From positions 1 through 35,609 of the forward strand of contig NZ_NKXO01000035.1 in assembly GCF_002843425.1 (NCBI RefSeq): DNA of 35,609 nucleotides. Reading direction: 5' to 3'. The DNA is from Raineya orbicola (GTDB lineage: Bacteria; Bacteroidota; Bacteroidia; Cytophagales; Thermonemataceae). Position 1 is the stretch's first letter. The number at the start of each line of letters is the position of its first letter. Position numbers and translations under genes: made by a program. Of this stretch, positions 1,115-31,968 are shown piece after piece. The notes beneath the pieces are model-generated. The model ran no database searches, had not been told where the DNA came from, and saw only the letters and a program-made list of their open reading frames with translations.

Positions 1115-1250
1115 CTTGTAAAGTTGTTAAAGTGCTTGTCTAATTACTGAAAGCAAGTTTATGATGGGTTCAAAAGCCTAAAATTTAAATTCAAACCTGC
1201 AAACTTGCTTTCAGAAGTTTTGAGCAAACTTTACAGGTTTTCTTTTTTTG
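1115..1250. repeat. Nested inverted repeats between trxA and the Gcr-family gene
   Basis: A perfect 14-bp inverted repeat (CTGAAAGCAAGTTT at 1147-1160, AAACTTGCTTTCAG at 1201-1214) sits inside an outer 9-bp repeat (TGTAAAGTT at 1117-1125, AACTTTACA at 1227-1235). The 40-nt inner loop itself holds GGTT/AACC and the palindrome AATTTAAATT. A T-rich run follows on the + strand (1238-1249). The position between two convergent genes suggests a transcription terminator. The outer right arm covers the stop codon of the minus-strand gene. Confidence 0.5.
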
Positions 1251-3330
1251 AAGTTTTCTTCTCATCAGGTAAAAGTTCGGGAATTTGTAAAGGAAAGAAA
1301 AACGCCAAAGGCTTTTTGAAAAAAGCTTTAAGCAATATCTGTACAATCTTTCCTGTTTCTACAAAGGTAACATTTCGGGATTTGAGAGCAACAATAACTG
1401 AAAGACCAAAGCTCACCGTAACATTTACCAAACCTATCAAGAAAACACCCAAAAGTGTTTCTAAAATAATTTCCAGAGGCATTTGCCCGTGTTGTACTTG
1501 CAGGCACATTGCAAAAGCCCCTCCTGCGAAAGTTACGTGCCGAATATCTATGCCCAAGCCTATAATTTTACCAATGGTAGAAGTTGAGCCTAAAAATATT
1601 CCCAAAAAGAAGTTGCTGGCTAAGGCTCCTGTGTTTTTTTCAATGTATGCAACAAACTTTTCAAACAATTGTGAAGGTAAGATTTTCCTGAAAATAGAGT
1701 ATTTCCGCATACGAGCAGGAATATTATTATAGACCACTTGGTTATCGTAGTAGCCTGCAATCAAGCCTGCTGTCATCAGATATACACCTGCAATGGCGGC
1801 ATAGAGCAAAGAAAAGCTTGCCCAGGGCGAAAGTTCTTTTACGGTTTTTTCAGCTTTCTGAAAGCCTACTACATCTGTTTCAAAAATCCAAAAATATCCC
1901 ATTGTAAGCAGGTAAGCCACAGGAATTACAGCCAAAACATTTCCTGAAAGAGAAATAAATTGGCTTCTTATTATTCTGATAAGTGTATGAAGTAGTTGCC
2001 CATATAAAACACGTTCTTTACTTTTAGGGCTTTTCAAGTTTCGCCATTCGCTCAAAATATCGGCAATGGTAGAGGCAGTCATTGCAGGCTGTTTGGTGGC
2101 TAATGTGAAGTGAAAAATGTGTATCAGAATAAAGCCCAGTGAGTAGTTGAGGCTGTAAAATATAGCCATTAGCATGGGAGCCGTATCTTGCTCAATATAA
2201 GAAAGTTTAGCTTTGATGAGTACTAAAAAAGCCACAATTACACCGCCCCCCAATGCTTTTCTGAATAGTTCAAAATACTCTTTCCTGTTGTTTGTAATGT
2301 AGTGCTCGCCTGTTTTGGCAGTATGCTCTACAACTTTATGAGCCAAAAAGCTCAGATTATCTGAAAAGTGCTTGCGTAAGCTATATTTTTTATTTTCTGC
2401 CCAAACAATTTCTTTGAAAAAGAAAATTACCTCTTGCAAATTCGCTTCTTTTGAAGCAGGTTTGATGAAGAGTAAAATTTTTTTTAAGCGTTCAATATTT
2501 TGTGTAAGACGTAAAATGAAATAAGTTATTCTCAAACTAACCCCATACTTTTCTCTATCTTTGTGCAAACGAGCGATGCTATCTTCACATTGTTGCAAAA
2601 GCACCCAAATTTGGTTGTAATCTTCCTCGCTGGGAATTTGGTCGGTAGTAATATCTTTGTATTTTTCGACAAACTTGCTAATTTCAATGAGCATTGAAAG
2701 AAAAGGCGAGTTCAAATCGTCCATATCGGGCAACTTCTCAATGATTTCAGGCTCAAGCCCCAAGGAAGTAGCCTTTTGAGCAAGCACTACAATAGCATTG
2801 AGCATTTCATTGAGAAAGTATTTTTGCATTTCCTCGCTATCAAAGAGTTGGAGCGTATGAGCCAGTTCTATCCACAACTCATTGCTTATCAGGGTTATCC
2901 AGTTGTAGTCATCTTTTTTGTAAAAAACTTCATTGATAACGGTGCGTAACTCGCCTTCGCGATGCAAAGGAGGAAGTATTTTGTAAGAAAGTCTTTCATA
3001 AGTTTCTGTCCAAAAGCCTTTACTGCTCATTATGCCTACTTCGGTAAATACGAGTAGTGGGTTATTTTGCAGACAGATTTCTTCAATGAGTTTTTTAAGA
3101 TTATTTCGGGCTTGTGCATTTTGTTGGAGTAGTTGGATAAGTTCTTGAATTTTTTGCTCGGCAATTTTACGAATGTTGGTAAAAGTTCGTGGGCGAATAA
3201 TGCTGACTAAATCTTTCAGCAGAAAAATACGCCTTTCTTGAGCTAATTTGGTGTCCAGTCCGCTATCAGGATTAGATAACTCTTGATAAAAGTCTTGGAG
3301 CGAGTTAAAAAAATCGTTAAAAGTTTGCAT
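1231..3330 (-). CDS. Gcr-family ('SpecificRecomb', PF10136-like) membrane protein
   Basis: The 699-residue product resembles the family often labelled 'site-specific recombinase, Gcr'. The N-terminal half (about 1-355) is soluble, helical and rich in charged residues. The C-terminal half has several hydrophobic segments, starting near 355-380 (GGGVIVAFLVLIKAK) and running through the family hallmark LNYSLGF...HFTLATKQPAMTA. It ends in a highly charged tail. I see no tyrosine- or serine-recombinase catalytic arrangement, so the name is a historical label and an integral inner-membrane protein of unknown function is the safer reading. It lies 73 bp downstream of upp on the same strand and may be co-transcribed. 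Confidence 0.75.
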   Translation of the reverse strand: MQTFNDFFNSLQDFYQELSNPDSGLDTKLAQERRIFLLKDLVSIIRPRTFTNIRKIAEQKIQELIQLLQQNAQARNNLKKLIEEICLQNNPLLVFTEVGIMSSKGFWTETYERLSYKILPPLHREGELRTVINEVFYKKDDYNWITLISNELWIELAHTLQLFDSEEMQKYFLNEMLNAIVVLAQKATSLGLEPEIIEKLPDMDDLNSPFLSMLIEISKFVEKYKDITTDQIPSEEDYNQIWVLLQQCEDSIARLHKDREKYGVSLRITYFILRLTQNIERLKKILLFIKPASKEANLQEVIFFFKEIVWAENKKYSLRKHFSDNLSFLAHKVVEHTAKTGEHYITNNRKEYFELFRKALGGGVIVAFLVLIKAKLSYIEQDTAPMLMAIFYSLNYSLGFILIHIFHFTLATKQPAMTASTIADILSEWRNLKSPKSKERVLYGQLLHTLIRIIRSQFISLSGNVLAVIPVAYLLTMGYFWIFETDVVGFQKAEKTVKELSPWASFSLLYAAIAGVYLMTAGLIAGYYDNQVVYNNIPARMRKYSIFRKILPSQLFEKFVAYIEKNTGALASNFFLGIFLGSTSTIGKIIGLGIDIRHVTFAGGAFAMCLQVQHGQMPLEIILETLLGVFLIGLVNVTVSFGLSVIVALKSRNVTFVETGKIVQILLKAFFKKPLAFFFPLQIPELLPDEKKTSKKENL

Positions 3331-15122: not shown

Positions 15123-16544
15123 CTATTTGGTAGTTAGTTCGTAGCAACCCCAGTGGTAAGTAGTGTTACCTGTTTTCTCATCTATTACAAAAGGGTTTTC
15201 GGGGTCTCCTTCAATGAAACTTATTTTTTTAACGGCATCTGTCAGTCCTTCAAAATACAACATAAAAGTATGCATTTCGCCATAAGCCGAAGATTGGCTA
15301 TAAGGGGCAAGAGCAATATTGAATACTTTGGTTACTGGATAAATTTTTTTAGTAGTTAAGTCATAAGCGTTGAACGCAGTTTTACCACCCGGAGCATCGG
15401 TGCGAATAGCAGAGCCTCTCACAAAAGTCGTATTTACGGTTTGGAAATAAACAATAGCTCCTTTATCGGTGTATTGGATTTTGTCTAAATAAAGCAATCC
15501 ACTACCTTTGCTATCACATTCCATAGTGTATTTGGCTTCTCTTACAATTTTCTGCTTGCTCAAAAATGTAGCAAAATCAAAGGCTTCATCTTTGGCTTTT
15601 CCATTGCTATATTCGATGGTACGAGTGGGTTTCCATTCTTTTTTATCATTTTCGCGGAAATTATCTTGTGTTTTGCCTTCTCTTACGCCATTTTTTACTT
15701 CAATCAGAGTAATTTCTGATTTACCGCTCAAACTCATTTCCTTTACAACCCCTGTGAAAGGCTGTCCATCTTTCAGGAATTTTTCAGAAGCGATAATATC
15801 GTTGTTGTAAGTAATAACAGCTACAACGCCATCGGCGTAGTAGTTTTTCCATTCGCCTACGCGATTATTTTTGCTAAAAGTGCCTTCTTGTACAAGGGTT
15901 TCTTTGTCTTCCCAAATGTGATATTTTTTGTAAGCCCCATCATAAAAATTAGAAAAAGAGCTATTGAGGGGATTTATTTGTTGATACCCTTCTATTTCTA
16001 AACGCCTGCCGATTTTTTTACCTGTAGGTTTTTTATTATCGTCTAAATGGTCGGCGATGTAATAAAAAAACATTTTTACTTTACGGGGAAACTTGCTGGC
16101 ATCTGAAAGAAAAACATATTTGTGGTCTAATACTTTGGTTTCAGGGTGGTAGAATTCTACCTCTTTCAAATCGCCCTTATCAAAGGTTTCTATGGTTTCA
16201 AGGATGCCTCCTAAAATGTAATTTTCTATTTTACCATTTTTTAATCCTGTAAAATAGTTCCCCTTTTCTACCATTTCTTTACCTTCCATTCCCATTGTGT
16301 ATATTTCCAGAGAGCCGTGCAAAAGTTCGCCTTGGAAAGAGCCTTTGCTATTACCAACTTTACCCCCTTTTACCCAATAGTAGGTTTTAGAAGGCTCGGG
16401 AGTAATTTTACAACTTACACATACTTCGGCGATACCTTCTTGGTCGCCGTCTTTAATTTTTACTTTTTTGGTTTGGTATTGTCCCAATACAAAACCCTTA
16501 GCTACAAAAAATAGCACTGCAAGCAGGTAAAACTTTTTATTCAT
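15123..16544 (-). CDS. Exported MORN-like repeat protein
   Basis: 473 residues with a signal peptide (MNKKFYLLAVLFFVAKGFVLGQ), so it is periplasmic or surface-located. The centre carries degenerate MORN_2-type repeats, seen as GELLHGSLEIY, NYFTGLKNGKIENY, GTFSKNNRVGEWKNYYADG and KDGQPFTGVV. This is the repeat style of the YwqK-like proteins common in Bacteroidota, whose function is mostly unknown. A Cys pair (C-V-S-C) near residues 42-45 precedes the repeats. The last 130 or so residues lack repeats and look like a beta-rich domain. It is monocistronic, with 249 bp of AT-rich DNA upstream. Confidence 0.7.
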   Translation of the reverse strand: MNKKFYLLAVLFFVAKGFVLGQYQTKKVKIKDGDQEGIAEVCVSCKITPEPSKTYYWVKGGKVGNSKGSFQGELLHGSLEIYTMGMEGKEMVEKGNYFTGLKNGKIENYILGGILETIETFDKGDLKEVEFYHPETKVLDHKYVFLSDASKFPRKVKMFFYYIADHLDDNKKPTGKKIGRRLEIEGYQQINPLNSSFSNFYDGAYKKYHIWEDKETLVQEGTFSKNNRVGEWKNYYADGVVAVITYNNDIIASEKFLKDGQPFTGVVKEMSLSGKSEITLIEVKNGVREGKTQDNFRENDKKEWKPTRTIEYSNGKAKDEAFDFATFLSKQKIVREAKYTMECDSKGSGLLYLDKIQYTDKGAIVYFQTVNTTFVRGSAIRTDAPGGKTAFNAYDLTTKKIYPVTKVFNIALAPYSQSSAYGEMHTFMLYFEGLTDAVKKISFIEGDPENPFVIDEKTGNTTYHWGCYELTTK

Positions 16545-23530: not shown

Positions 23531-24508
23531 CTACTGCTTCCGCAGAAATTCTAGTAAAATTTCATTAAATTTTTCAGCGTGAGTTTCCATTAGGCAATGC
23601 CCTGCTTGCGGAATAACTCGCAAGGGTACAAATGAATGTTTTTGAACAAAAGCATCTGCAAGCGATTTTTTTACCCATTGATCATTCTCTCCCCAAACGA
23701 GTTGTAACCTTTCTGCAAAGTCTTGATAATCAGCAGAAACATTGAGCGTATCGGTGGGAGCGTTTTCAAAAGTGCTTAAAATAGCATCGGTTGTTCCTTG
23801 TATTTGAAAAGGGGCTAAATAGCCTTCTATATCTTCTTTTTCAGGTGTTTTTGAATAAGCAGAGGCAAGCAGTTCTTTGAACTTTTCAAAATTAAAATAA
23901 AAATTTTCTGCAATTACTTTTATCCAACGCTTAATAGGAGGATATTTCAGAAGCAAACTCATTCCTGCACTGCGGTAAGGGCGAAATTTATTGGGCAAAC
24001 CACCTACACAAAGCACTTTTTCTACTTTTTCGGGCTTATAGATAGCCATATTCCAAACATAGCTTGCACCCATAGAATGTCCAACCAAATGCCATTTGGC
24101 AGTAGGGTTGATGATTTCAGCGAGTTGCCACAAAATTTTTATTCTTTGCTCGTTGCTCATATTCCAGTGTTCTACTTGCCTATCGCTAAAACCGAAAGCA
24201 GGTAAATCTATACAAAGCACCTGATAGCCCTTTTCTTGGAAAAATTTTACATTTTTTCGCCACGAAAAAGTAGAACCCGAAAATCCGTGAATAAATAAAA
24301 TGCTACCCTGTGATTTTTGAGAAGGTTCAAAAACACGATAATGTAGCCAAACTCGGTCTATTTCAATAAATTTGCTTTCAGGAAAATAATTCTTTTGTTC
24401 CAAGAAATGAGGAAACTTACGCAGAGGAAAAGCATAAGGTAACAAAGATAGAAATACAAACAAAATCAGTATTCCTATGCCAATGCGTTTGAGCCATTTT
24501 CTAAACAT
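23531..24508 (-). CDS. Alpha/beta hydrolase, membrane-anchored
   Basis: 325 residues. An N-terminal hydrophobic helix (about 9-27, IGIGILILFVFLSLLPYAF) probably anchors it in the membrane with the enzyme outside. The oxyanion region is LFIHGFSGSTFSW. The nucleophile elbow is GHSMGA (Ser145), the acid is in LVWGENDQWV and the His in PQAGHCLMETHAEKF, so the triad is complete. It resembles general esterase/epoxide-hydrolase-like enzymes, and the substrate is unknown. It is the last gene of a minus-strand run, 13 bp after the TerD gene. Its stop codon abuts that of the convergent PDZ-hydrolase with no bases between. Confidence 0.85.
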   Translation of the reverse strand: MFRKWLKRIGIGILILFVFLSLLPYAFPLRKFPHFLEQKNYFPESKFIEIDRVWLHYRVFEPSQKSQGSILFIHGFSGSTFSWRKNVKFFQEKGYQVLCIDLPAFGFSDRQVEHWNMSNEQRIKILWQLAEIINPTAKWHLVGHSMGASYVWNMAIYKPEKVEKVLCVGGLPNKFRPYRSAGMSLLLKYPPIKRWIKVIAENFYFNFEKFKELLASAYSKTPEKEDIEGYLAPFQIQGTTDAILSTFENAPTDTLNVSADYQDFAERLQLVWGENDQWVKKSLADAFVQKHSFVPLRVIPQAGHCLMETHAEKFNEILLEFLRKQ

Positions 24509-24521
24509 TCAGGAGTAAAAT

Positions 24522-25163
24522 TTAATTGAGGTAGTGTTTTTGAATGTGTAGAATGGTCTCGTCTATGTTTTTGGTAGGTACAGCCTCACCGATAGCGGTA
24601 AATTCCCATTGTCCGTTTTCTTTGCGAGTTAGCTTACCTAGAACCATTGAAACGTGTTTTTTGAAGGCTTCTTCGGCGGAAAGATTGAAAGTAGCAAAAA
24701 CTGAATCTACTCTTTTACTATTACCTTCAAAAATACGAATTTTGGAATATGGTATTTCAGCGAAGTCTTGCCCATTGTAGGAATTGAGATAAAAAACGAT
24801 ATATTTTACTTTCGGATTGACTTTGGTCAGGTTAATTTCAATGACTTCGTTATCTAGTTCATCATCTCCGTAAATATCGCCATCTCTATCATCACCGCTA
24901 TGCACAATGGCACCATCTTTGGAACGCAATTTCCTGTAATACACGGTTTCTACAATTTGTTTATTTTCATCATAAGTAGTAACGCTTCCGTCTAAATCTA
25001 CGGCTACGGTTTGCTTGATCAGGTTGAACAAAATTCCTTTTTTGATAGCTCCCCAATTTAAGCCTATACACACTTCTTCCAAACGTTTTCCCTCTTTTTC
25101 TAAAGAAATCTTGCTACCTTTGGAAAGATTGATGCCTGTTTTTTTATCTAATTGTATGCTCAT
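24522..25163 (-). CDS. TerD-family calcium-binding stress protein
   Basis: 213 residues. The TerD fold is shown by INLSKGSKISLEK, then GLNWG, VAVDLDGSV (Asp56, Asp58), the acidic Ca2+-binding stretch HSGDDRDGDIYGDDE (88-102), and KYIVFYLNSYNGQDFAEIP. The end contains MVLGKLTRKENGQWEFTAIGE. TerD proteins belong to the tellurite-resistance/general stress systems and bind Ca2+; they are cytosolic and often associate with membranes. No TerA/B/C/Z neighbour is present. It follows the SGNH-LysM gene by 71 bp and precedes the hydrolase by 13 bp, so it is probably part of the same transcript. Confidence 0.9.
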   Translation of the reverse strand: MSIQLDKKTGINLSKGSKISLEKEGKRLEEVCIGLNWGAIKKGILFNLIKQTVAVDLDGSVTTYDENKQIVETVYYRKLRSKDGAIVHSGDDRDGDIYGDDELDNEVIEINLTKVNPKVKYIVFYLNSYNGQDFAEIPYSKIRIFEGNSKRVDSVFATFNLSAEEAFKKHVSMVLGKLTRKENGQWEFTAIGEAVPTKNIDETILHIQKHYLN

Positions 25164-25234
25164 AACTTTCAGAATGGTTTCAGTTTTTGCTGTAATGATA
25201 AGGAAATTTTATGAGAAAAGCAAATGGGTAAATT

Positions 25235-26785
25235 TTATTTTTGTAGCTCAATGATGAGTGCCTGCCCAATACGAAGATGGCTATCAGTCAGTTTGTTCCA
25301 AGTTTGCAGTTGCGAAACGCTCACTTTATATTTTTGAGCAATTGTAAAAAGCGTATCACCCTGTTTTACGATATAAGTAATGTTTTGGGTCTTGGGCTGA
25401 TTTTTAACGGGGACAATCGTTTGATTTTTTTCTATACTATCTTTGGGTTTTACAGGTTTTTTGGTGTTACTTGCTGAGTAACCATAGGCAAAAATACGTT
25501 TTTGCTGAAAGTGAGCCTGTGCTTGTTTAAGAGTATCCACATTAAGCAAGAAATGAGTTTTTTGGGGATTTTTTTCAAAATATTGAAAGCTATTGAGTAG
25601 TGCTTCAAAGAACAAATTACCCTTCAAAGTATAGCCTTGGGCATTGAGATGTACCATATCAGGCAAAGTAAGCCCTGCTTTGAACCAATCTCGCATAACG
25701 GTTTGTCCGCCTGCAACCCAATACCAATCATAGACAAGGCATTTGGTTTCGGAAGCGATTTTATGTATTAGTTCTGAAAAGGCAAGCCCCGATTTGATAT
25801 TTACTTTTCGCCAATATAAATCTTGGGCGGTAGTGAGCAAAATCACCGCATCAGGGCATATATTGCGAATTTTTGCAATAATTTCACGAATTTGGTTTTC
25901 TAAATTAGGGGCAATTTTATCATCATAGAGGTAATCGTTTGTACCGAAGTCAAGCACAATCAAATCAGGTTTGAAGTAGGGTAATTGCTTGGCTAAAAGT
26001 TCTTTTCGTAAAACAGAACCATATTTTGCCGCTCCTACACCCGCATTGTGTAGAATGGCATTTTTGTTTTGGTTATTTTCTAAAACCATTCCATAAAATT
26101 CAAAAAAATTCTGATTTTCACGATTTTTTTCTAATTCTAAACGCAAACTATGCTTTACAGGAGGAATAGCAATGCGAATAAAAGGCATTGCATCAGTGTT
26201 ATCTGTGGAAATTTGAATGTGTTGTGCTTCGTCTATGATAAGTTTTATATCAAAACTTTCGGGGCTTTTTTTGCAAAAAATGGTAAGTAAATTATTTTCA
26301 GTGTTTAAGGGTTCTTTGAAGGAAAAAGTAAGTGAAGCGGGTAATTTTTCAGTACGCACGCTCATTCCTGAAACTCCCAAAGGCAATTTGAGCGTATTCA
26401 TAAAACTTTTTGTGTACTGCCATTTACCTTCGTGAGTAGTCTTGTAATCGGCATTAGAATAGGTATTTGCCGCAGAGAAAGCTGTAAGCAATCCTTTACC
26501 TCCATTCCCTAAAACGGCTTGTAGGCGTTTGCGAAAGGCATCGGGGTAAGCTCCCTGTTGCAAGTGAGAATCGCCAAAGAAAACAACTGAAAATTTATCT
26601 TTTGGAGCTAATTTCCATTTGTAGTACAAATATGCCAAAACATCTCGCTGATAGTATTGTACGTAGTTGAGCGAAGGTTTGAGCCAAGGATATGCAAGCG
26701 TATCAGCAGAAGTTTTAGTGGCTTCCTGTGCTTTGCATTGCAGAAAAACGAATAATGATAGATATAGCAAATAAAATTTGGGCAT
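25235..26785 (-). CDS. Exported SGNH/GDSL hydrolase with C-terminal LysM domain
   Basis: 516 residues from the ATG at 26785. The frame opens earlier, at 26827, but only this start begins with the signal peptide (MPKFYLLYLSLFVFLQCKAQ). SGNH blocks: Ser73 in FFGDSHLQQG (block I), GTND at 281-284 (block III) and Asp376/His379 in DMVHL (block V). The last 46 residues are a LysM repeat (YIVKQGDTLFTIAQKYK...LRIGQALII) joined by a Lys/Pro linker. LysM binds N-acetylglucosamine polymers, so the enzyme probably works on or beside peptidoglycan. An O-acetylesterase role is possible, but the substrate is an inference. It lies 26 bp after the vWA-like lipoprotein gene. Confidence 0.85.
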   Translation of the reverse strand: MPKFYLLYLSLFVFLQCKAQEATKTSADTLAYPWLKPSLNYVQYYQRDVLAYLYYKWKLAPKDKFSVVFFGDSHLQQGAYPDAFRKRLQAVLGNGGKGLLTAFSAANTYSNADYKTTHEGKWQYTKSFMNTLKLPLGVSGMSVRTEKLPASLTFSFKEPLNTENNLLTIFCKKSPESFDIKLIIDEAQHIQISTDNTDAMPFIRIAIPPVKHSLRLELEKNRENQNFFEFYGMVLENNQNKNAILHNAGVGAAKYGSVLRKELLAKQLPYFKPDLIVLDFGTNDYLYDDKIAPNLENQIREIIAKIRNICPDAVILLTTAQDLYWRKVNIKSGLAFSELIHKIASETKCLVYDWYWVAGGQTVMRDWFKAGLTLPDMVHLNAQGYTLKGNLFFEALLNSFQYFEKNPQKTHFLLNVDTLKQAQAHFQQKRIFAYGYSASNTKKPVKPKDSIEKNQTIVPVKNQPKTQNITYIVKQGDTLFTIAQKYKVSVSQLQTWNKLTDSHLRIGQALIIELQK

Positions 26786-26811
26786 AAAGTACAAAATTCG
26801 TTTGACAAAAG

Positions 26812-27621
26812 TTATTCTACATTCCACTCTTTAAGTTCTTCTAATCCGAGCTTGGTGAGCATTTTTTCCCAATAATACAAAACATTGGGGTTGTTTTGGT
26901 TGGTGGTGCTTAAAGGTGAATGAGGCAAAACGTAAAATATCTCTACATCACTCAAATCAATATCAGTGAAACGCTTGACGTCTTTTTCAGCCCATTGCTC
27001 GGCTTCTTGCTTGCTAAAAGGTGGTCTTTTGTAGAAATCCCGACGCTCCAAACCGGGCATACTTTCTACCATATCGCTTAAAATAAATACTTTCAGAAGG
27101 CTATTTTCAGGTTTTTTGGCATTTTTTTTGTCAATAATGGGCAAAATCGCCCATATATCGGTATACTGCTTGGTTTCAGTAATGTTATCATCTAAAAGAG
27201 CTTCTATACAACGTTGTTGTATTTTGTTTTTTTCTTTTTTCAAACTTACCTGATAGGTATTTTTGATAGATTTAATATCCGTAGGGTTCAGCCCTGTGGT
27301 ATCTTTCATTTCTGCTTTGCACTGCATTGCAAATACGCGTGCCTGCGAAGTGTTTTCGTGCAGAAAATAGACTTCAATTTTATCACCTTTCTGACGAATA
27401 TTTTGTTGGACAATAGTTTGCAGGGCTTTTTCGTATTTTTCGCGTGTAAAGTTTTCTTTTAAGCTCACGCTTACAGTTTTATCTATGAAAATCAGCGAAT
27501 AGATATTTGGAGCAGGTTTAGGCGGAGGAACTTGTTGGGGAGGCTGATTGCCACCACAAGAACTAAAAAAAACACAAAAAAAAGAAAGTTTAGCTACCCA
27601 AATAGTAAGCAATGATTTCAT
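26812..27621 (-). CDS. Lipoprotein with cryptic von Willebrand A-like domain
   Basis: 269 residues. The N-terminus is a lipoprotein signal ending in FFSSC22-GG, followed by a Pro-rich linker (25-38). The next strand reads SLIFIDKTVSVS, with Asp47, Thr49 and Ser51 placed as a MIDAS DxTxS motif. Thr154 in YTDIWAIL and Asp183 in VFILSDMVES fit the second and third MIDAS positions. I infer a divergent vWA fold; no family name is recognised with certainty. vWA proteins mediate metal-dependent protein interactions. It lies between the 4-TM coiled-coil gene (14 bp upstream) and the SGNH-LysM gene (26 bp downstream). Confidence 0.7.
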   Translation of the reverse strand: MKSLLTIWVAKLSFFCVFFSSCGGNQPPQQVPPPKPAPNIYSLIFIDKTVSVSLKENFTREKYEKALQTIVQQNIRQKGDKIEVYFLHENTSQARVFAMQCKAEMKDTTGLNPTDIKSIKNTYQVSLKKEKNKIQQRCIEALLDDNITETKQYTDIWAILPIIDKKNAKKPENSLLKVFILSDMVESMPGLERRDFYKRPPFSKQEAEQWAEKDVKRFTDIDLSDVEIFYVLPHSPLSTTNQNNPNVLYYWEKMLTKLGLEELKEWNVE

Positions 27622-27635
27622 TGGAAAAAAGAGAT

Positions 27636-29222
27636 TTATTTTTTTCTAATTTTGCTTAAAACTTTACTGCTAATAGTGCGGTTAGGTTGAGGCGTTTCAG
27701 TGATACCTTCATTTATCATCTCTTCTTGTTTTTCTGTTTCTTCATTTTTTGCTTCTTTTGCTAAAATCTCTTGAATAGCTGCTTTACCATTGCCATTTAA
27801 GTTTTCTTCAAGGTTTGAGAGTTCTTTGGTTAGTTTTTCTGAATTGTATGTTTGTTCTTGCTTTTTTATTTCTTCTAGTTTGAAAGCGTGTTGCCCTTTT
27901 TCATAACCTAAATTGAGTTCATAAATTTGCAGTTCTACTTTGCAGGTATGCAAATCTTTTTTGAGTTTAAGAATAGTATCGGCAATTTCTTGTCTTTGCT
28001 TTTGTAATTCTTCCAAATTACCAAGAGCTTCTAATTGGCTTTTTTTGGCTTCTGCGATAGCAGTTTGCTCGCTTATAGTGTGCTCTAAATCCTCTACACT
28101 GCTTAACTGCGACTCGCGAATTTTCTGTAATTTACGTAATTTGATAGGAATTTGAAACCAAATTCTGATATACGCTACAAGAATTGGAAACGCAATACCC
28201 AAACAGATAGCCCCTGCAATGGCAAACATTACTCCTGAAAGTACAAAAGCCCACATTCCCGAAGGACTTTGTACTAAATCTTGGCTTAACTTTTCTGTTT
28301 TGCGAGAAAGTTCTTCTATCAGTGCTAAGTTTTGTGAGGTTTCCTCCTCTTGCAGCGTTAGAATGGTACTATTGAGGCTATTTTTGAGCTGGTCGGCTCG
28401 GTAGGCTTCATAACGAAAATAACCCAAAATACAAAGAGTAACTATGGTAAAAAGGACTACTAATATTTTGAAAATCAGATATACACGTTTAGAACGAAGC
28501 GTTTTATCTTCTAAATAAGGATACTCTATCAGTCTATCATAAGCAGGTTTCAAAAGCACTGAAACCATCGCTAAACCTACTGCAAAACTCCACGCCTCTA
28601 TGTTGTTTTTGATGTTGAGAGCATAAGCTACAATCTCGTGAGAAATAATTAAATCACCTGCAATAAATACAATCGCCGCAAGCAAAAATAAAATTCCTCC
28701 TAAAAATGAGTTGTTATTGCGTAAATTTTCTCTTTCTGTTTTATAGCTTTGAATTTGCTTTTCAGTTTCAGCAAGTCCCTCGCCACGTCTTTGGCGGAGG
28801 TTTATTTGATAGTCTAATTGGTAATTGATTTGAGTAAGTTCGCTAAAAATATCTTGATATTTTTGTTTATGAAGGGTTATTTTTTGTAAATTTTCTTGCA
28901 GGAGAGTTTCTTGGTAAAGCAGTTGGTCAAATATTTTATCATAACGCCCTTTTTCAGAAAGATAGGTTTCTAATGTATCTTTAGAAAGCCCAAAATAACC
29001 ATTCCAAAAGCCTGATTGGTAGTTATCATTTTTCTGCAAAGCCTCCTCAAAAAGGTCTAAAACAGGAGGATTTTCAGGGAGAGGAGTGGTAGTTTCAGTC
29101 GTTTCAATTGGTTGCTGAGAAGTGAAAGTTGTTTGAGTGTTTTCGGGCAAAATAGTTTCATCAACAGATTTAGGCTCACTGCTTTCGGACAAAGTTTCTA
29201 TATGTTTGATAGCCTCTTCCAT
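27636..29222 (-). CDS. Four-TM protein with flanking coiled coils, unknown function
   Basis: 528 residues from the ATG at 29222; an in-frame upstream start at 29258 gives an unlikely N-terminus. I recognise no named family. Order: an acidic Thr/Pro-rich N-terminal region (1-60), a coiled coil (about 75-165), four membrane helices (about 171-193, 205-222, 245-268 and 322-354) and a second coiled coil (about 365-470). The stretch between helices 3 and 4 (about 270-320) is also a likely coiled coil. The C-terminal tail is charged and ends in KIRKK. This looks like a membrane scaffold with long cytoplasmic helices. It lies between batD and the vWA-like lipoprotein gene and reads in the same direction. 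Confidence 0.65.
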   Translation of the reverse strand: MEEAIKHIETLSESSEPKSVDETILPENTQTTFTSQQPIETTETTTPLPENPPVLDLFEEALQKNDNYQSGFWNGYFGLSKDTLETYLSEKGRYDKIFDQLLYQETLLQENLQKITLHKQKYQDIFSELTQINYQLDYQINLRQRRGEGLAETEKQIQSYKTERENLRNNNSFLGGILFLLAAIVFIAGDLIISHEIVAYALNIKNNIEAWSFAVGLAMVSVLLKPAYDRLIEYPYLEDKTLRSKRVYLIFKILVVLFTIVTLCILGYFRYEAYRADQLKNSLNSTILTLQEEETSQNLALIEELSRKTEKLSQDLVQSPSGMWAFVLSGVMFAIAGAICLGIAFPILVAYIRIWFQIPIKLRKLQKIRESQLSSVEDLEHTISEQTAIAEAKKSQLEALGNLEELQKQRQEIADTILKLKKDLHTCKVELQIYELNLGYEKGQHAFKLEEIKKQEQTYNSEKLTKELSNLEENLNGNGKAAIQEILAKEAKNEETEKQEEMINEGITETPQPNRTISSKVLSKIRKK

Positions 29223-29309
29223 AAATAAGTGGTGTTTGCATATTTTTTGAAAGAACAAATCTACAAAATTATCTAACTTTGGGCAAATGTTTTTACAAGA
29301 AACATAGGG

Positions 29310-30704
29310 CTATTCCCTGAAATTTGATAAAACTTTATACAAAACTATCAAAAAAAGTAGAGCAAGCAAGCCAGTGGCTATCCAACGCGTACGTGAATAA
29401 GTACGCATTTGCATAGGAGTATCATCAGCTTTTTCAATCCAAGATTGTAGCTCGCTATTTTCTAATGAAGAAAATTCCAGAGGGCTACCGCTTACTTCCA
29501 ACACTAATTTGGAGCGTAGCGTATCTATTTTTTTAGTTTCTTGGTTGAAATAAGCTAGGAAAAAGTAGTTTTTGAGTGGATATTTGCCCGGTTTTTTCGC
29601 TAAAATGGTGTATCTGAACGATTTTACACCAATAATTTGCGAAGGCATTTTGCGTAGAGTTTGTTCGGTAGCGGTAGCATAAAATTCTAAAAAATTGTTG
29701 CTATTGGGGGGGGGTAAGTTAAGTCTTGCAAAGTTGGCATTGCCCACAATATTGATTTGATAATTCACGCTCTGCCCTGTTTGAATTTTAAGATAAGTAA
29801 TGATTTCTTGCATTTGTAGCCTTCCTGTGAGATTTTTGATATTTTTGGGTAGAGGCTTTATCAGAATAGAAAGAGGATTGCTTCGCAGGGAAAGCAGTTT
29901 TTCTTTTTCTTTATCCAAAACTTTAAGCTCCAAAGAGGGAATATTCCAGAGCAGAGGCTCGGTAGGGTAGAAGGCACTCTGAAAGAACTTGTAACGTTTG
30001 TACGTTTTCTTTTCTAAAATGATTTCATCAGTGCTTACGCTATCCAGCCCGTAGTTTTCTTGCCAAGATTTGGGTAAGTGAATTTGACGAATAATTTGGC
30101 TGATTTGTCTATCTAAATCATATAAATCCAAAGCTATGGGGGCGTTTTTGGCTACATACAAAGCAAAATTCAGATTGATTTCTTCTCCTACAAATACTTC
30201 TTTGGTATTGGCTGTAAGGGCAACAAATACATTTTGCAACTTACCTAAACCTACTAAGTCTTCTGCTTGGCTTTCTTCTTCAAGTTGTGAAAGCAAATCC
30301 GTTTCTGTATTTTCTGGGCTTTCTTCTACCCAAACCTCTTCTCCTTTGAATGTTTGTTTTTTAGTACCGACTTTTATTTCAAAAGAATTGATTTTGAATT
30401 TGCCTACCTTCAAGGGTTTGTAATTTTGTTCTATTCCTTTCCAAATTTCGCCTTTATCGCTGGTGTATTCCAAACTCACTTGAAAAGTTTTCTCAAAATC
30501 TTTGATTTCAGGGAAACCTTCTGCACCTTTGAAATCTTCATAATTTGATAACACACGGATTTGCAAAAATTCATTTTGTTTGATTTTCTTGCGGGCGAGT
30601 TCTATGCGTATTTCTTGCGAATAGCCCTGTAAAATGGTCAAGAATATAAATAACTGAAAAATAGTCTTTATCCAAGTTTTTTTTGAACTTTTTTGGGAAA
30701 ACAT
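29310..30704 (-). CDS. batD: BatD-family protein
   Basis: 464 residues. An N-terminal signal sequence ends near GYSQ, a large beta-rich extracytoplasmic part follows, and a single C-terminal membrane helix (WIATGLLALLFLIVLYKVL, about 440-460) is typical of BatD. The repeat-like segments EIRIELARKKIKQNEFLQI and VFVALTANTKEVFVGEEINLNFALYV match the BatD beta domain. In the Bacteroidota 'aerotolerance' (bat) operons BatD accompanies a MoxR ATPase and the vWA proteins BatA/BatB; none is adjacent here, though a vWA-like lipoprotein is encoded two genes downstream. It is the first gene of the six-gene minus-strand block. Confidence 0.85.
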   Translation of the reverse strand: MFSQKSSKKTWIKTIFQLFIFLTILQGYSQEIRIELARKKIKQNEFLQIRVLSNYEDFKGAEGFPEIKDFEKTFQVSLEYTSDKGEIWKGIEQNYKPLKVGKFKINSFEIKVGTKKQTFKGEEVWVEESPENTETDLLSQLEEESQAEDLVGLGKLQNVFVALTANTKEVFVGEEINLNFALYVAKNAPIALDLYDLDRQISQIIRQIHLPKSWQENYGLDSVSTDEIILEKKTYKRYKFFQSAFYPTEPLLWNIPSLELKVLDKEKEKLLSLRSNPLSILIKPLPKNIKNLTGRLQMQEIITYLKIQTGQSVNYQINIVGNANFARLNLPPPNSNNFLEFYATATEQTLRKMPSQIIGVKSFRYTILAKKPGKYPLKNYFFLAYFNQETKKIDTLRSKLVLEVSGSPLEFSSLENSELQSWIEKADDTPMQMRTYSRTRWIATGLLALLFLIVLYKVLSNFRE

Positions 30705-31032: not shown

Positions 31033-31968
31033 TCATTCAAGGCTTGCAAATTGGATATTTCGTTGCAAGCCTTTTATTTTTGTTCTTTTCACTGCTGATT
31101 TAGGAAAAACTTTGGCAAAAACTTCTTCTGTAATTTCTAACCAATCTTTTTTCTGCATATTTTTCAGATGCTCATTAGGCTCAAATTCAGGGGTTTGGTG
31201 AGGCTTGGCAAAACGATTCCAAGGACAAACATCTTGACAAACATCACAGCCAAAAATCCAATTTTCCATTTTCCCCTGAAATTCTTGTGGAATTTCATTT
31301 TTTAACTCAATTGTAAGATATGAAATACACTTGCTCCCATCTACAACATAAGGACTTACAATCGCCTCCGTAGGACAAGCCTCCAAACAACGCCTGCACG
31401 TACCGCAATAATCGCCCGTAGGGGCATCATAGGCAAGTTCTAAATCTATAATGATTTCGCCAATGAAAAAGAAACTTCCTATTTTTCGGTTAATCAGATT
31501 TGTATGCTTGCCAATCCAGCCTAAACCGCTTCGTTCTGCCCAAACTTTATCCATTACAGGTGCCGAATCTACAAAAGCTCTGCCATTTATTTCTCCAATA
31601 TTCTCCCGAATAAAATTCAGTAATTCATTCATTTTGCGTTTCATTACAAAATGATAATCTTCCCCATAAGCATATTTGGAAATCTTGAAATTATCAGGGT
31701 TAGTTTGAGCCAAATCTTGCTTGGGAAAATAATTCAAAAGAACAGAAATAACAGATTTTGCTCCCTCTACTAAAAGTTTAGGATTGAGCCTTTTATCAAA
31801 ATGATTAGCCATATAGCTCATTTCGCCTTGCATATTGTTTTTGAGCCACATTTCAAGGCGAGGAGCTTCTTTTTCCAAAAATTCAGCTTTGGCAATACCG
31901 CAAAAATCAAAGCCAATTTCGCGAGCTTTTTGTTTGATAAGTTGGCTATATTTTTCTGCAAAGCCCAA
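31033..31968 (-). CDS. queG: Epoxyqueuosine reductase
   Basis: 311 residues. QueG performs the last step of queuosine synthesis in tRNA, reducing epoxyqueuosine with a cobalamin cofactor and two [4Fe-4S] clusters. The clusters' Cys are in [16 protein letters not shown] and, further on, [11 protein letters not shown]. The catalytic Asp lies in [26 protein letters not shown], a hallmark segment. The normal C-terminus (KGLQRNI) is kept. It starts 10 bp after the transketolase half on the same strand. Its last codons contain the terminator hairpin of the convergent small gene. Confidence 0.95.
31039..31080 (+). terminator. Intrinsic terminator embedded in the 3' end of queG
   Basis: AAGGCTTGCAA (31039-31049) pairs perfectly with TTGCAAGCCTT (31063-31073), followed by TTATTTTTG on the + strand. 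It ends the small + strand gene (stop at 31019) while encoding the last residues of QueG on the other strand. Confidence 0.8.

What the first reader, a model, noticed from the sequence alone, without database searches (positions are those of the whole stretch)
23531..30704. Six-gene minus-strand block linking BatD, a 4-TM coiled-coil protein, a vWA-like lipoprotein, an SGNH-LysM enzyme and TerD
All six genes point the same way with gaps of 87, 14, 26, 71 and 13 bp, as in one operon. The set combines a Ca2+-binding TerD protein with a vWA-type fold, a pairing known from ter stress systems, but here the vWA-like protein is a lipoprotein and the partners are envelope proteins: BatD, a LysM-anchored hydrolase and a membrane scaffold. 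This could be an undescribed module that senses or repairs envelope damage. Co-transcription and joint function are inference.
Basis: partly seen in the sequence, partly recalled or inferred. Interest (0 to 1): 0.68.

Follow-up and report, generated by a model that had tools for sequence, protein, structure and literature searches.

The report
Paired membrane protein and vWA lipoprotein
The six-gene block is a recent, genus-level cluster and not a conserved module, but two of its genes, an uncharacterised membrane protein and a lipoprotein with an integrin-like metal-binding domain, are present or absent together across the genomes searched, and in some bacteria they sit inside CRISPR immune loci.

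Summary
The six minus-strand genes and their gaps (87, 14, 26, 71, 13 bp) are real. The six-gene module is not conserved: of four genomes held in the genus, the window's has six, two have five each, and one keeps only the 4-TM/lipoprotein pair together. A promoter-like site before the 4-TM gene persists where BatD is not upstream.

What survives is the pair. Of 390 genomes of the order, 85 have both genes, 304 neither; the one exception is a 20-bit match. In 71 of the 85 the two are not neighbours. Of 395 genomes of the phylum the same nine have both. The lipoprotein has a vWA fold with a complete metal site; the 4-TM protein has invariant charged residues in or near its membrane helices. A third membrane coiled-coil protein ('c2') lies beside the 4-TM gene in many lineages, but not in the window's family. 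In three of five genomes outside the window's class the triad sits in a type III CRISPR locus: III-A in Rhodothermus, III-D-like in another. I read it as a transmembrane switch; mechanism inferred.

The parts
27636..29222 (-). Core gene 1: membrane protein with three to four predicted membrane helices and cytoplasmic coiled coils ('4-TM'); no known family
26812..27621 (-). Core gene 2: vWA-fold lipoprotein with complete MIDAS (D47, T/S49, S51, T154, D183; lipobox Cys22)
29256..29287 (-). Promoter-like site (TTTG-N20-TAGATTTG, Bacteroidota type) between BatD and the 4-TM gene; the stretch is conserved in three genomes of the genus, one of them without BatD upstream
   Evidence: the consensus is recalled, not from a call
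25235..26785 (-). SGNH hydrolase with C-terminal LysM; next to the pair only in three genomes of the genus
24522..25163 (-). TerD-domain protein (long, divergent clade); next to the pair's block only in three genomes of the genus
29310..30704 (-). BatD-domain protein; its kept neighbour in the genus is queG, not the pair
23531..24508 (-). Alpha/beta hydrolase with N-terminal hydrophobic helix; absent from this place in G001
31033..31968 (-). queG (epoxyqueuosine reductase), neighbour of BatD in the genus; not part of the pair

Best explanation
The block is a recent side-by-side gathering of genes in one genus (Raineya) around an older two-gene unit: the 4-TM coiled-coil protein and the vWA lipoprotein. 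Shown: the two have the same distribution as single copies, mostly without being neighbours; the lipoprotein has a vWA fold with an intact metal (MIDAS) site; the membrane protein has invariant charged residues in or near its membrane helices; in several lineages a third membrane coiled-coil protein (c2) is encoded directly upstream of it. Inferred: the two form one envelope complex. The lipid-anchored vWA domain works outside the inner membrane and grips an acidic residue, of the 4-TM protein or of an envelope ligand, through its metal site. The 4-TM core passes the conformational change across the membrane to cytoplasmic coiled coils, or is gated by them in the reverse direction. In Rhodothermus and one other lineage, type III CRISPR loci have taken up the triad, probably as a membrane-acting arm of the response.
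For: Same presence/absence: 15 of 59 genomes, own included; 85 of 390 in the order with one low-scoring exception; 9 of 395 in the phylum, where four further 4-TM hits match 73-99 profile positions in ORFs over 1000 aa. Of the 85, 14 have the genes within 5 kb, 24 on one contig but at least 97 kb apart, 47 on different contigs, so the joint profile is not a by-product of adjacency. Pairwise identities of the two proteins correlate, r = 0.96 over 52 genomes. MIDAS residues are kept in 53-54 of 54. vWA fold: pLDDT 86.7, Foldseek E 5.1e-6, VIA-align Z 12.1 to the integrin alpha2 I domain (rmsd 3.2, 165 aligned). D202, K237, R242, E245 and R282 of the 4-TM protein are invariant in 56 of 56. c2: genome-wide in 5 of 59 genomes, all five pair genomes, adjacent to the 4-TM gene in four of the five. 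CRISPR context.
Against: No direct evidence of contact or of signalling. The 4-TM model is weak (pLDDT 68.4; no PDB match at E 0.001). In Cytophagales the pair is not near Cas10 in the 26 pair genomes tested, and Cas10 is no commoner with it (5 of 15 against 7 of 44), so a CRISPR role cannot be general. Both profiles were built from the same 15 genomes and share the same reach, which favours agreement. No species tree was built. The r = 0.96 has no control gene. Two of the five genomes outside the class (G446, G482) have the triad away from CRISPR genes in the stretch seen. No CARF or SAVED match was found in the triad proteins scanned, so a CRISPR signal would need another route.
Confidence: 0.6

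Rival explanations
1. The pair (with c2) is a membrane effector module of type III CRISPR immunity, and its CRISPR-free copies in Cytophagales are relics or answer another nucleotide signal.
For: Triad between csm1/ring nuclease and csx2/csm6/cas6 on two Rhodothermus marinus plasmids; Cas10 match about 4 kb from c2 in G392 and G397; triad followed by Cas10-, Csx7- and Csx10-like genes, with a CRISPR array just upstream, in G687; membrane effectors such as Cam1, Csx23 and CorA are known in type III loci (PMC11229360 passages).
Against: Cas10 in 5 of 15 pair genomes against 7 of 44 others, and not near the pair in any of 26 Cytophagales pair genomes tested; G446 and G482 show no cas gene beside the triad among the neighbours annotated; no CARF or SAVED domain found.
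Confidence: 0.2
2. One reading: all six genes form one envelope-stress operon.
For: Short gaps and one direction in the window; five of the six kept in each of two close genomes.
Against: The order dissolves within the genus (G002), and outside it BatD, SGNH and TerD were not seen beside the pair; conserved promoter-like site inside the block.
Confidence: 0.06
3. The pair is a structural scaffold: a coiled-coil cytoskeletal or peptidoglycan-linking anchor with the vWA domain as an adhesive foot, without signalling.
For: Long predicted coiled coils, an adhesive-type vWA fold and single-copy presence in 69 genomes of one family, f11 (f11 genomes without it would not show in the capped lists).
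Against: Invariant charged residues in or near the membrane helices and recruitment to CRISPR loci suggest more than anchoring.
Confidence: 0.2

Closest known systems
Integrin-type vWA (I) domains
   Same: vWA fold and MIDAS signature DxSxS / T / D, kept in 53-54 of 54 sequences
   Different: Bacterial lipoprotein of 269 aa with its own conserved blocks (RRDF, LPxSP, NNPxVxxYW); no sequence match in PDB below E 0.5
ter stress systems (TerD with cytoplasmic vWA TerY; the pairing is recalled)
   Same: A vWA protein near a TerD gene in the window
   Different: The vWA protein here is a lipoprotein and occurs with or without TerD; TerD is its near neighbour only in three genomes of the genus
Bat operon (MoxR, vWA BatA/BatB, BatD; composition recalled)
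   Same: One BatD-domain protein
   Different: No MoxR or BatA/B in the six genes and two flanking genes scanned; BatD lies beside queG in the genus
Membrane effectors of type III CRISPR (Cam1, Csx23, CorA)
   Same: Membrane proteins that act in type III CRISPR defence (PMC11229360, PMC11014256, passages)
   Different: A two- or three-protein set with a vWA lipoprotein; present in many genomes without Cas10
CRISPR-linked vWA systems with transmembrane proteins (UAS-7, UAS-87 and others in PMC10910872)
   Same: vWA-related and transmembrane genes near CRISPR loci (passages)

Membership tests
vWA / I-domain fold | Rossmann-like vWA fold | tested here: met
   AF2 pLDDT 86.7; VIA-align Z 12.1, rmsd 3.2, 165 aligned to 4bj3_A; 534 of 995 chains at Z 8 or more
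vWA / I-domain fold | Complete MIDAS motif DxSxS, T, D | tested here: met
   D47 54/54, T or S49 54/54, S51 53/54 (one T), T154 53/54 (one S), D183 54/54
Bacterial lipoprotein | Lipobox cysteine after a signal peptide | tested here: met
   Cys22 in 53 of 54 aligned sequences; hydrophobic N-terminus in the window protein
ter stress system | vWA partner that goes together with TerD-family genes | tested here: not met
   TerD over 150 bits in 9 of 15 pair genomes and 12 of 44 others; pair without any TerD hit in G006, G017, G024, G035, G050
Bat operon | BatD together with MoxR ATPase and vWA BatA/BatB | tested here: not met
   Pfam on the six genes plus one gene on each side shows BatD only
vWA-MoxR-VMAP ternary conflict system | MoxR ATPase next to the vWA gene | tested here: not met
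   No MoxR/AAA hit in the block, nor in those neighbours annotated in the loci outside the class
Type III CRISPR accessory module | Encoded within a cas10 locus | tested here: inconclusive
   Met in R. marinus, G392 and G687; not met in the window genome (Cas10 on another contig), G446, G482 or any of 26 Cytophagales pair genomes tested
Type III CRISPR accessory module | cOA-sensing domain (CARF, SAVED or other) | tested here: inconclusive
   No such Pfam or NCBIfam match in the triad proteins scanned; Csx23 shows that unrelated sensors exist

The most novel reading that the evidence does not exclude
c2-4TM-vWA is an undescribed bacterial transmembrane switch with an integrin-like external metal-dependent domain, whose two core genes stay together in the genome even when scattered, and which at least two CRISPR loci of different subtype (III-A and III-D-like) have adopted as a membrane arm of immunity.
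Probability: 0.25. Interest if true: 0.8.

Novelty: new variant of a known kind. Interest (0 to 1): 0.52.

Why it matters
Two uncharacterised gene families without a curated model turn out to be tied to each other in 90 distinct genomes, mostly without being neighbours, which makes their joint function directly testable by paired deletion. The Rhodothermus marinus plasmid copies give a named strain in which the same triad lies in a type III-A CRISPR locus, so a role in immunity can be checked. The result also shows how a tidy operon in one genome can mislead: four of the six genes are companions found there only within the genus.

Tried and rejected
Six-gene module: rejected. TerD-vWA partnership: rejected; the excess with the pair (9 of 15 against 12 of 44, naive Fisher p 0.03) is weak and partly kinship. 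SGNH-LysM over 200 bits is enriched with the pair (7 of 15 against 2 of 44), but all seven lie in the window's own family and in four of them it is elsewhere in the genome; read as shared ancestry. General dependence on type III CRISPR: rejected by Cas10 counts. Defence and phage families for the pair: one PADLOC line (Cas2d, E 0.018) and two PHROGs (0.039, 0.099), read as chance. Viral contigs (two peptide patterns) and phage records: no relative of the lipoprotein; plasmids: only the two R. marinus records. PDB by sequence: lipoprotein best E 0.57; 4-TM profile only coiled-coil matches, best E 0.0045. Foldseek on the 4-TM model: mostly long-helix and coiled-coil chains, best E 0.0019. The R. 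marinus 4-TM protein matches coiled-coil NCBIfam models far below their cut-offs (best E 5.4e-6). c2 against 4-TM: profile comparison 40% probability, E 0.0003, over 68 columns, and the c2 profile weakly hits the 4-TM gene of G017 (E 7.2e-5); distant kinship is possible but not claimed. Sigma-70-type promoters and terminators: not above shuffles. My first ORF picker hid the vWA gene of G024 and c2 of G392 behind opposite-strand ORFs; corrected. The five odd 4-TM hits (G347, G480, G494, G583, G673) were judged from the tables alone. Papers: searches listed none; 74 one genome announcement (listing); 75 ten (listing, PMC7159879 then read in passages); 60 and 61 listings. PMC11229360, PMC11014256, PMC10910872 and PMC7159879 were seen only as passages; Shmakov 2018 and Shah 2019 are not held, so an earlier listing there cannot be excluded.
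Full report
Observation. Pfam names BatD, GDSL/SGNH plus LysM, TerD and an alpha/beta hydrolase; the 4-TM protein and the lipoprotein have no convincing Pfam or NCBIfam match. The window is contig C35 of a 3.07 Mb genome with two further TerD genes, side by side on contig C71. A scan of named genome contigs with the 4-TM protein found three relatives: Raineya sp. SKYG86, an uncultured Cytophagales MAG and Thermonema rossianum.

Conservation of the block. I compared gene order in the four genomes held of the genus. G000 has all six genes. G001 has BatD-4TM-vWA-SGNH-TerD and no hydrolase there. G003 has 4TM-vWA-SGNH-TerD-hydrolase; the gene upstream is a methyltransferase, and its BatD, split over two contig ends, lies beside queG. 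G002 has only 4TM-vWA together, with BatD beside queG, and with SGNH and TerD elsewhere. Beyond the genus none of BatD, SGNH or TerD was seen next to the pair in the neighbourhoods examined. Over 59 genomes (own plus 58 relatives), BatD hits 54, the SGNH-LysM query 56, many by LysM alone, and TerD 23.

Promoter. Roughly 75 bp directly upstream of the 4-TM start are alike in G000, G001 and G003, although in G003 the gene further upstream differs; the stretch holds a TTTG-N20-TANNTTTG site in G000 and G003, while G001 has CTTG at the first position; G002 shows no clear likeness. The consensus is recalled. Eight such sites (spacing 18-22) occur on both strands of the whole 35.6 kb window, so the motif alone is weak; its position and conservation carry the argument.

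The pair. With single-protein queries the 4-TM protein and the lipoprotein each hit 15 of 59 genomes, and the 15 are the same. With alignment profiles over 390 genomes of the order, the 4-TM profile hits 86 and the lipoprotein profile 85; all 85 are shared, with one hit each. The odd one, G347, is a 20-bit match over 110 positions in a 2175-aa ORF. In 14 of the 85 the genes are within 5 kb; in 24 they are on one contig at least 97 kb apart; in 47 on different contigs, not each checked against contig ends. Some matches carry a stop mark; I did not examine these. Over 395 genomes of the phylum, the lipoprotein hits 9 and the 4-TM profile 13; the nine are shared and the other four (G480, G494, G583, G673) match 73-99 profile positions in ORFs of 1009-1175 aa. 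Four genomes are in both sets, so 90 distinct genomes carry the pair. Of the 85, 69 belong to one family, f11; the lists of genomes without a match are capped, so I cannot say whether all of f11 has it. A naive Fisher test was run but ignores kinship and should not be used; the better argument is that presence varies within families f5 (G011 lacks both), f9 (G033, G048) and f13 (G019, G036, G051) and between families, and both genes change together each time. Limits: the two profiles come from the same 15 genomes and so have the same reach, and no species tree was built.

Proteins. The lipoprotein model has mean pLDDT 86.7. Foldseek lists vWA-bearing chains (best E 5.1e-6), and VIA-align gives Z 12.1 to the integrin alpha2 I domain with 165 residues at 3.2 A, tied with other vWA domains. 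Across 54 sequences the MIDAS residues are D47 54, T or S49 54, S51 53, T154 53 and D183 54; the lipobox cysteine is in 53. The 4-TM model is weaker (68.4): long helices at 97-182 and 332-486 flank the membrane part. Hydropathy gives three strong segments (187-205, 261-279, 343-361); the helix at 219-251 is the probable fourth. Lys/Arg counts around the segments fit, without proving, a cytoplasmic N- and C-terminus. Across 56 sequences D202, K237, R242, E245 and R282 are invariant and E221 is kept in 55. So many fixed charges in or near membrane helices suggest gating or signal passage, not mere anchoring (inference).

Third partner. Clustering of neighbours showed a protein of about 350-400 aa ('c2') directly upstream of the 4-TM gene in many genomes. 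It has a conserved N-terminal stretch (WLxDExxLRDEGVIFGL), coiled coils and two or three strong hydrophobic segments; three members scanned have no Pfam match above cut-off (best E 0.0049). The unbiased test is genome-wide: its profile hits 5 of 59 genomes, all among the 15 pair genomes, and in four of the five it adjoins the 4-TM gene (G015 is the fifth). In my table of 58 pair genomes it is found in 41 and adjoins the 4-TM gene in 40, but there I looked mostly in stretches fetched around the pair, and the profile was built from such neighbours, so the 40 of 41 is partly by construction. It is missing genome-wide from the eight genomes of the window's family and from G031 and G046 of f5; near the 4-TM gene it was not seen in G073, G085, G098, G235 and G369; G150 and G212 were not fetched for it. 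The simplest history is an old triad, with c2 lost in the window's family and the vWA gene moved away in f11 (inference).

CRISPR context. A tblastn of the G397 lipoprotein finds Rhodothermus marinus plasmids pRMAR01 (DSM 4252) and pRHOM17201. On both, the triad lies between csm1/ring nuclease and csx2/csm6/cas6, with csx2 starting 3 bp after the lipoprotein gene. G392, of the same genus, has a csx2-like gene after the triad, with a TnpB gene behind it, and a Cas10 match about 4 kb before c2. In G687, of another family, the triad is followed by Cas10-, Csx7- and Csx10-like genes and preceded by a seven-copy repeat array with spacings of 76-83 bp; more copies of that repeat lie about 14 kb downstream. 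Those three cas matches are below their NCBIfam cut-offs (Csx10 E 3.9e-42, Csx7 1.5e-12, Cmr2 2.7e-10); the Cas10 palm domain is above Pfam's. Of the other two genomes outside the class, G446 has Cas10 on another contig and G482 has none. In 75 chosen genomes Cas10 is in 17; among the 59 it is in 5 of 15 pair genomes and 7 of 44 others; of 26 Cytophagales pair genomes tested six have Cas10, none near the pair. So type III loci have used the triad in two lineages, but its wider role does not need Cas10.

Mechanism. Likeliest: one envelope complex in which the lipid-anchored vWA domain binds an acidic ligand through its metal and the 4-TM core couples this to cytoplasmic coiled coils. Shown are the parts and their shared distribution; contact, direction of signal and ligand are inferred. 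In CRISPR loci the same core could act from inside outwards, by analogy with Cam1 and Csx23, which disturb the membrane (PMC11229360 and PMC11014256, passages). PMC10910872 reports vWA-related systems with transmembrane genes near CRISPR loci (passage); whether this triad is among them could not be checked.

Noticed in passing
L135:8826-11279: In G392 a TnpB-family gene lies between two ORFs of the csx2 cluster right after the triad, as if a mobile element had interrupted csx2.
   Followed up: partly
L199 (G687), L198 and L203 (G363), L197 (G055): Short, divergent Cas10-like ORFs of about 490-560 aa with low palm-domain scores; the G687 one heads a III-D-like gene set.
   Followed up: partly
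window 24522-25163: The TerD here belongs to a long (about 213 aa), divergent clade at 46-97% identity, found in 21 of 59 genomes (own included), often inside clusters of several TerD genes; in the four genomes of this genus it lies away from the other TerD genes.
   Followed up: partly
window 31033-31968 and 29310-30704: queG and batD are neighbours in all four genomes of the genus (split over contig ends in G003), an unexplained pairing.
   Followed up: no
window 1231-3330: A 699-aa protein with the full 'site-specific recombinase' PF10136 domain (E 8.1e-201), a name that may not describe its function.
   Followed up: no
window 15123-16544: A 473-aa ORF without a Pfam match at E 1e-5; a homologue lies near the block in G001 too (L037:13021-14442).
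   Followed up: no
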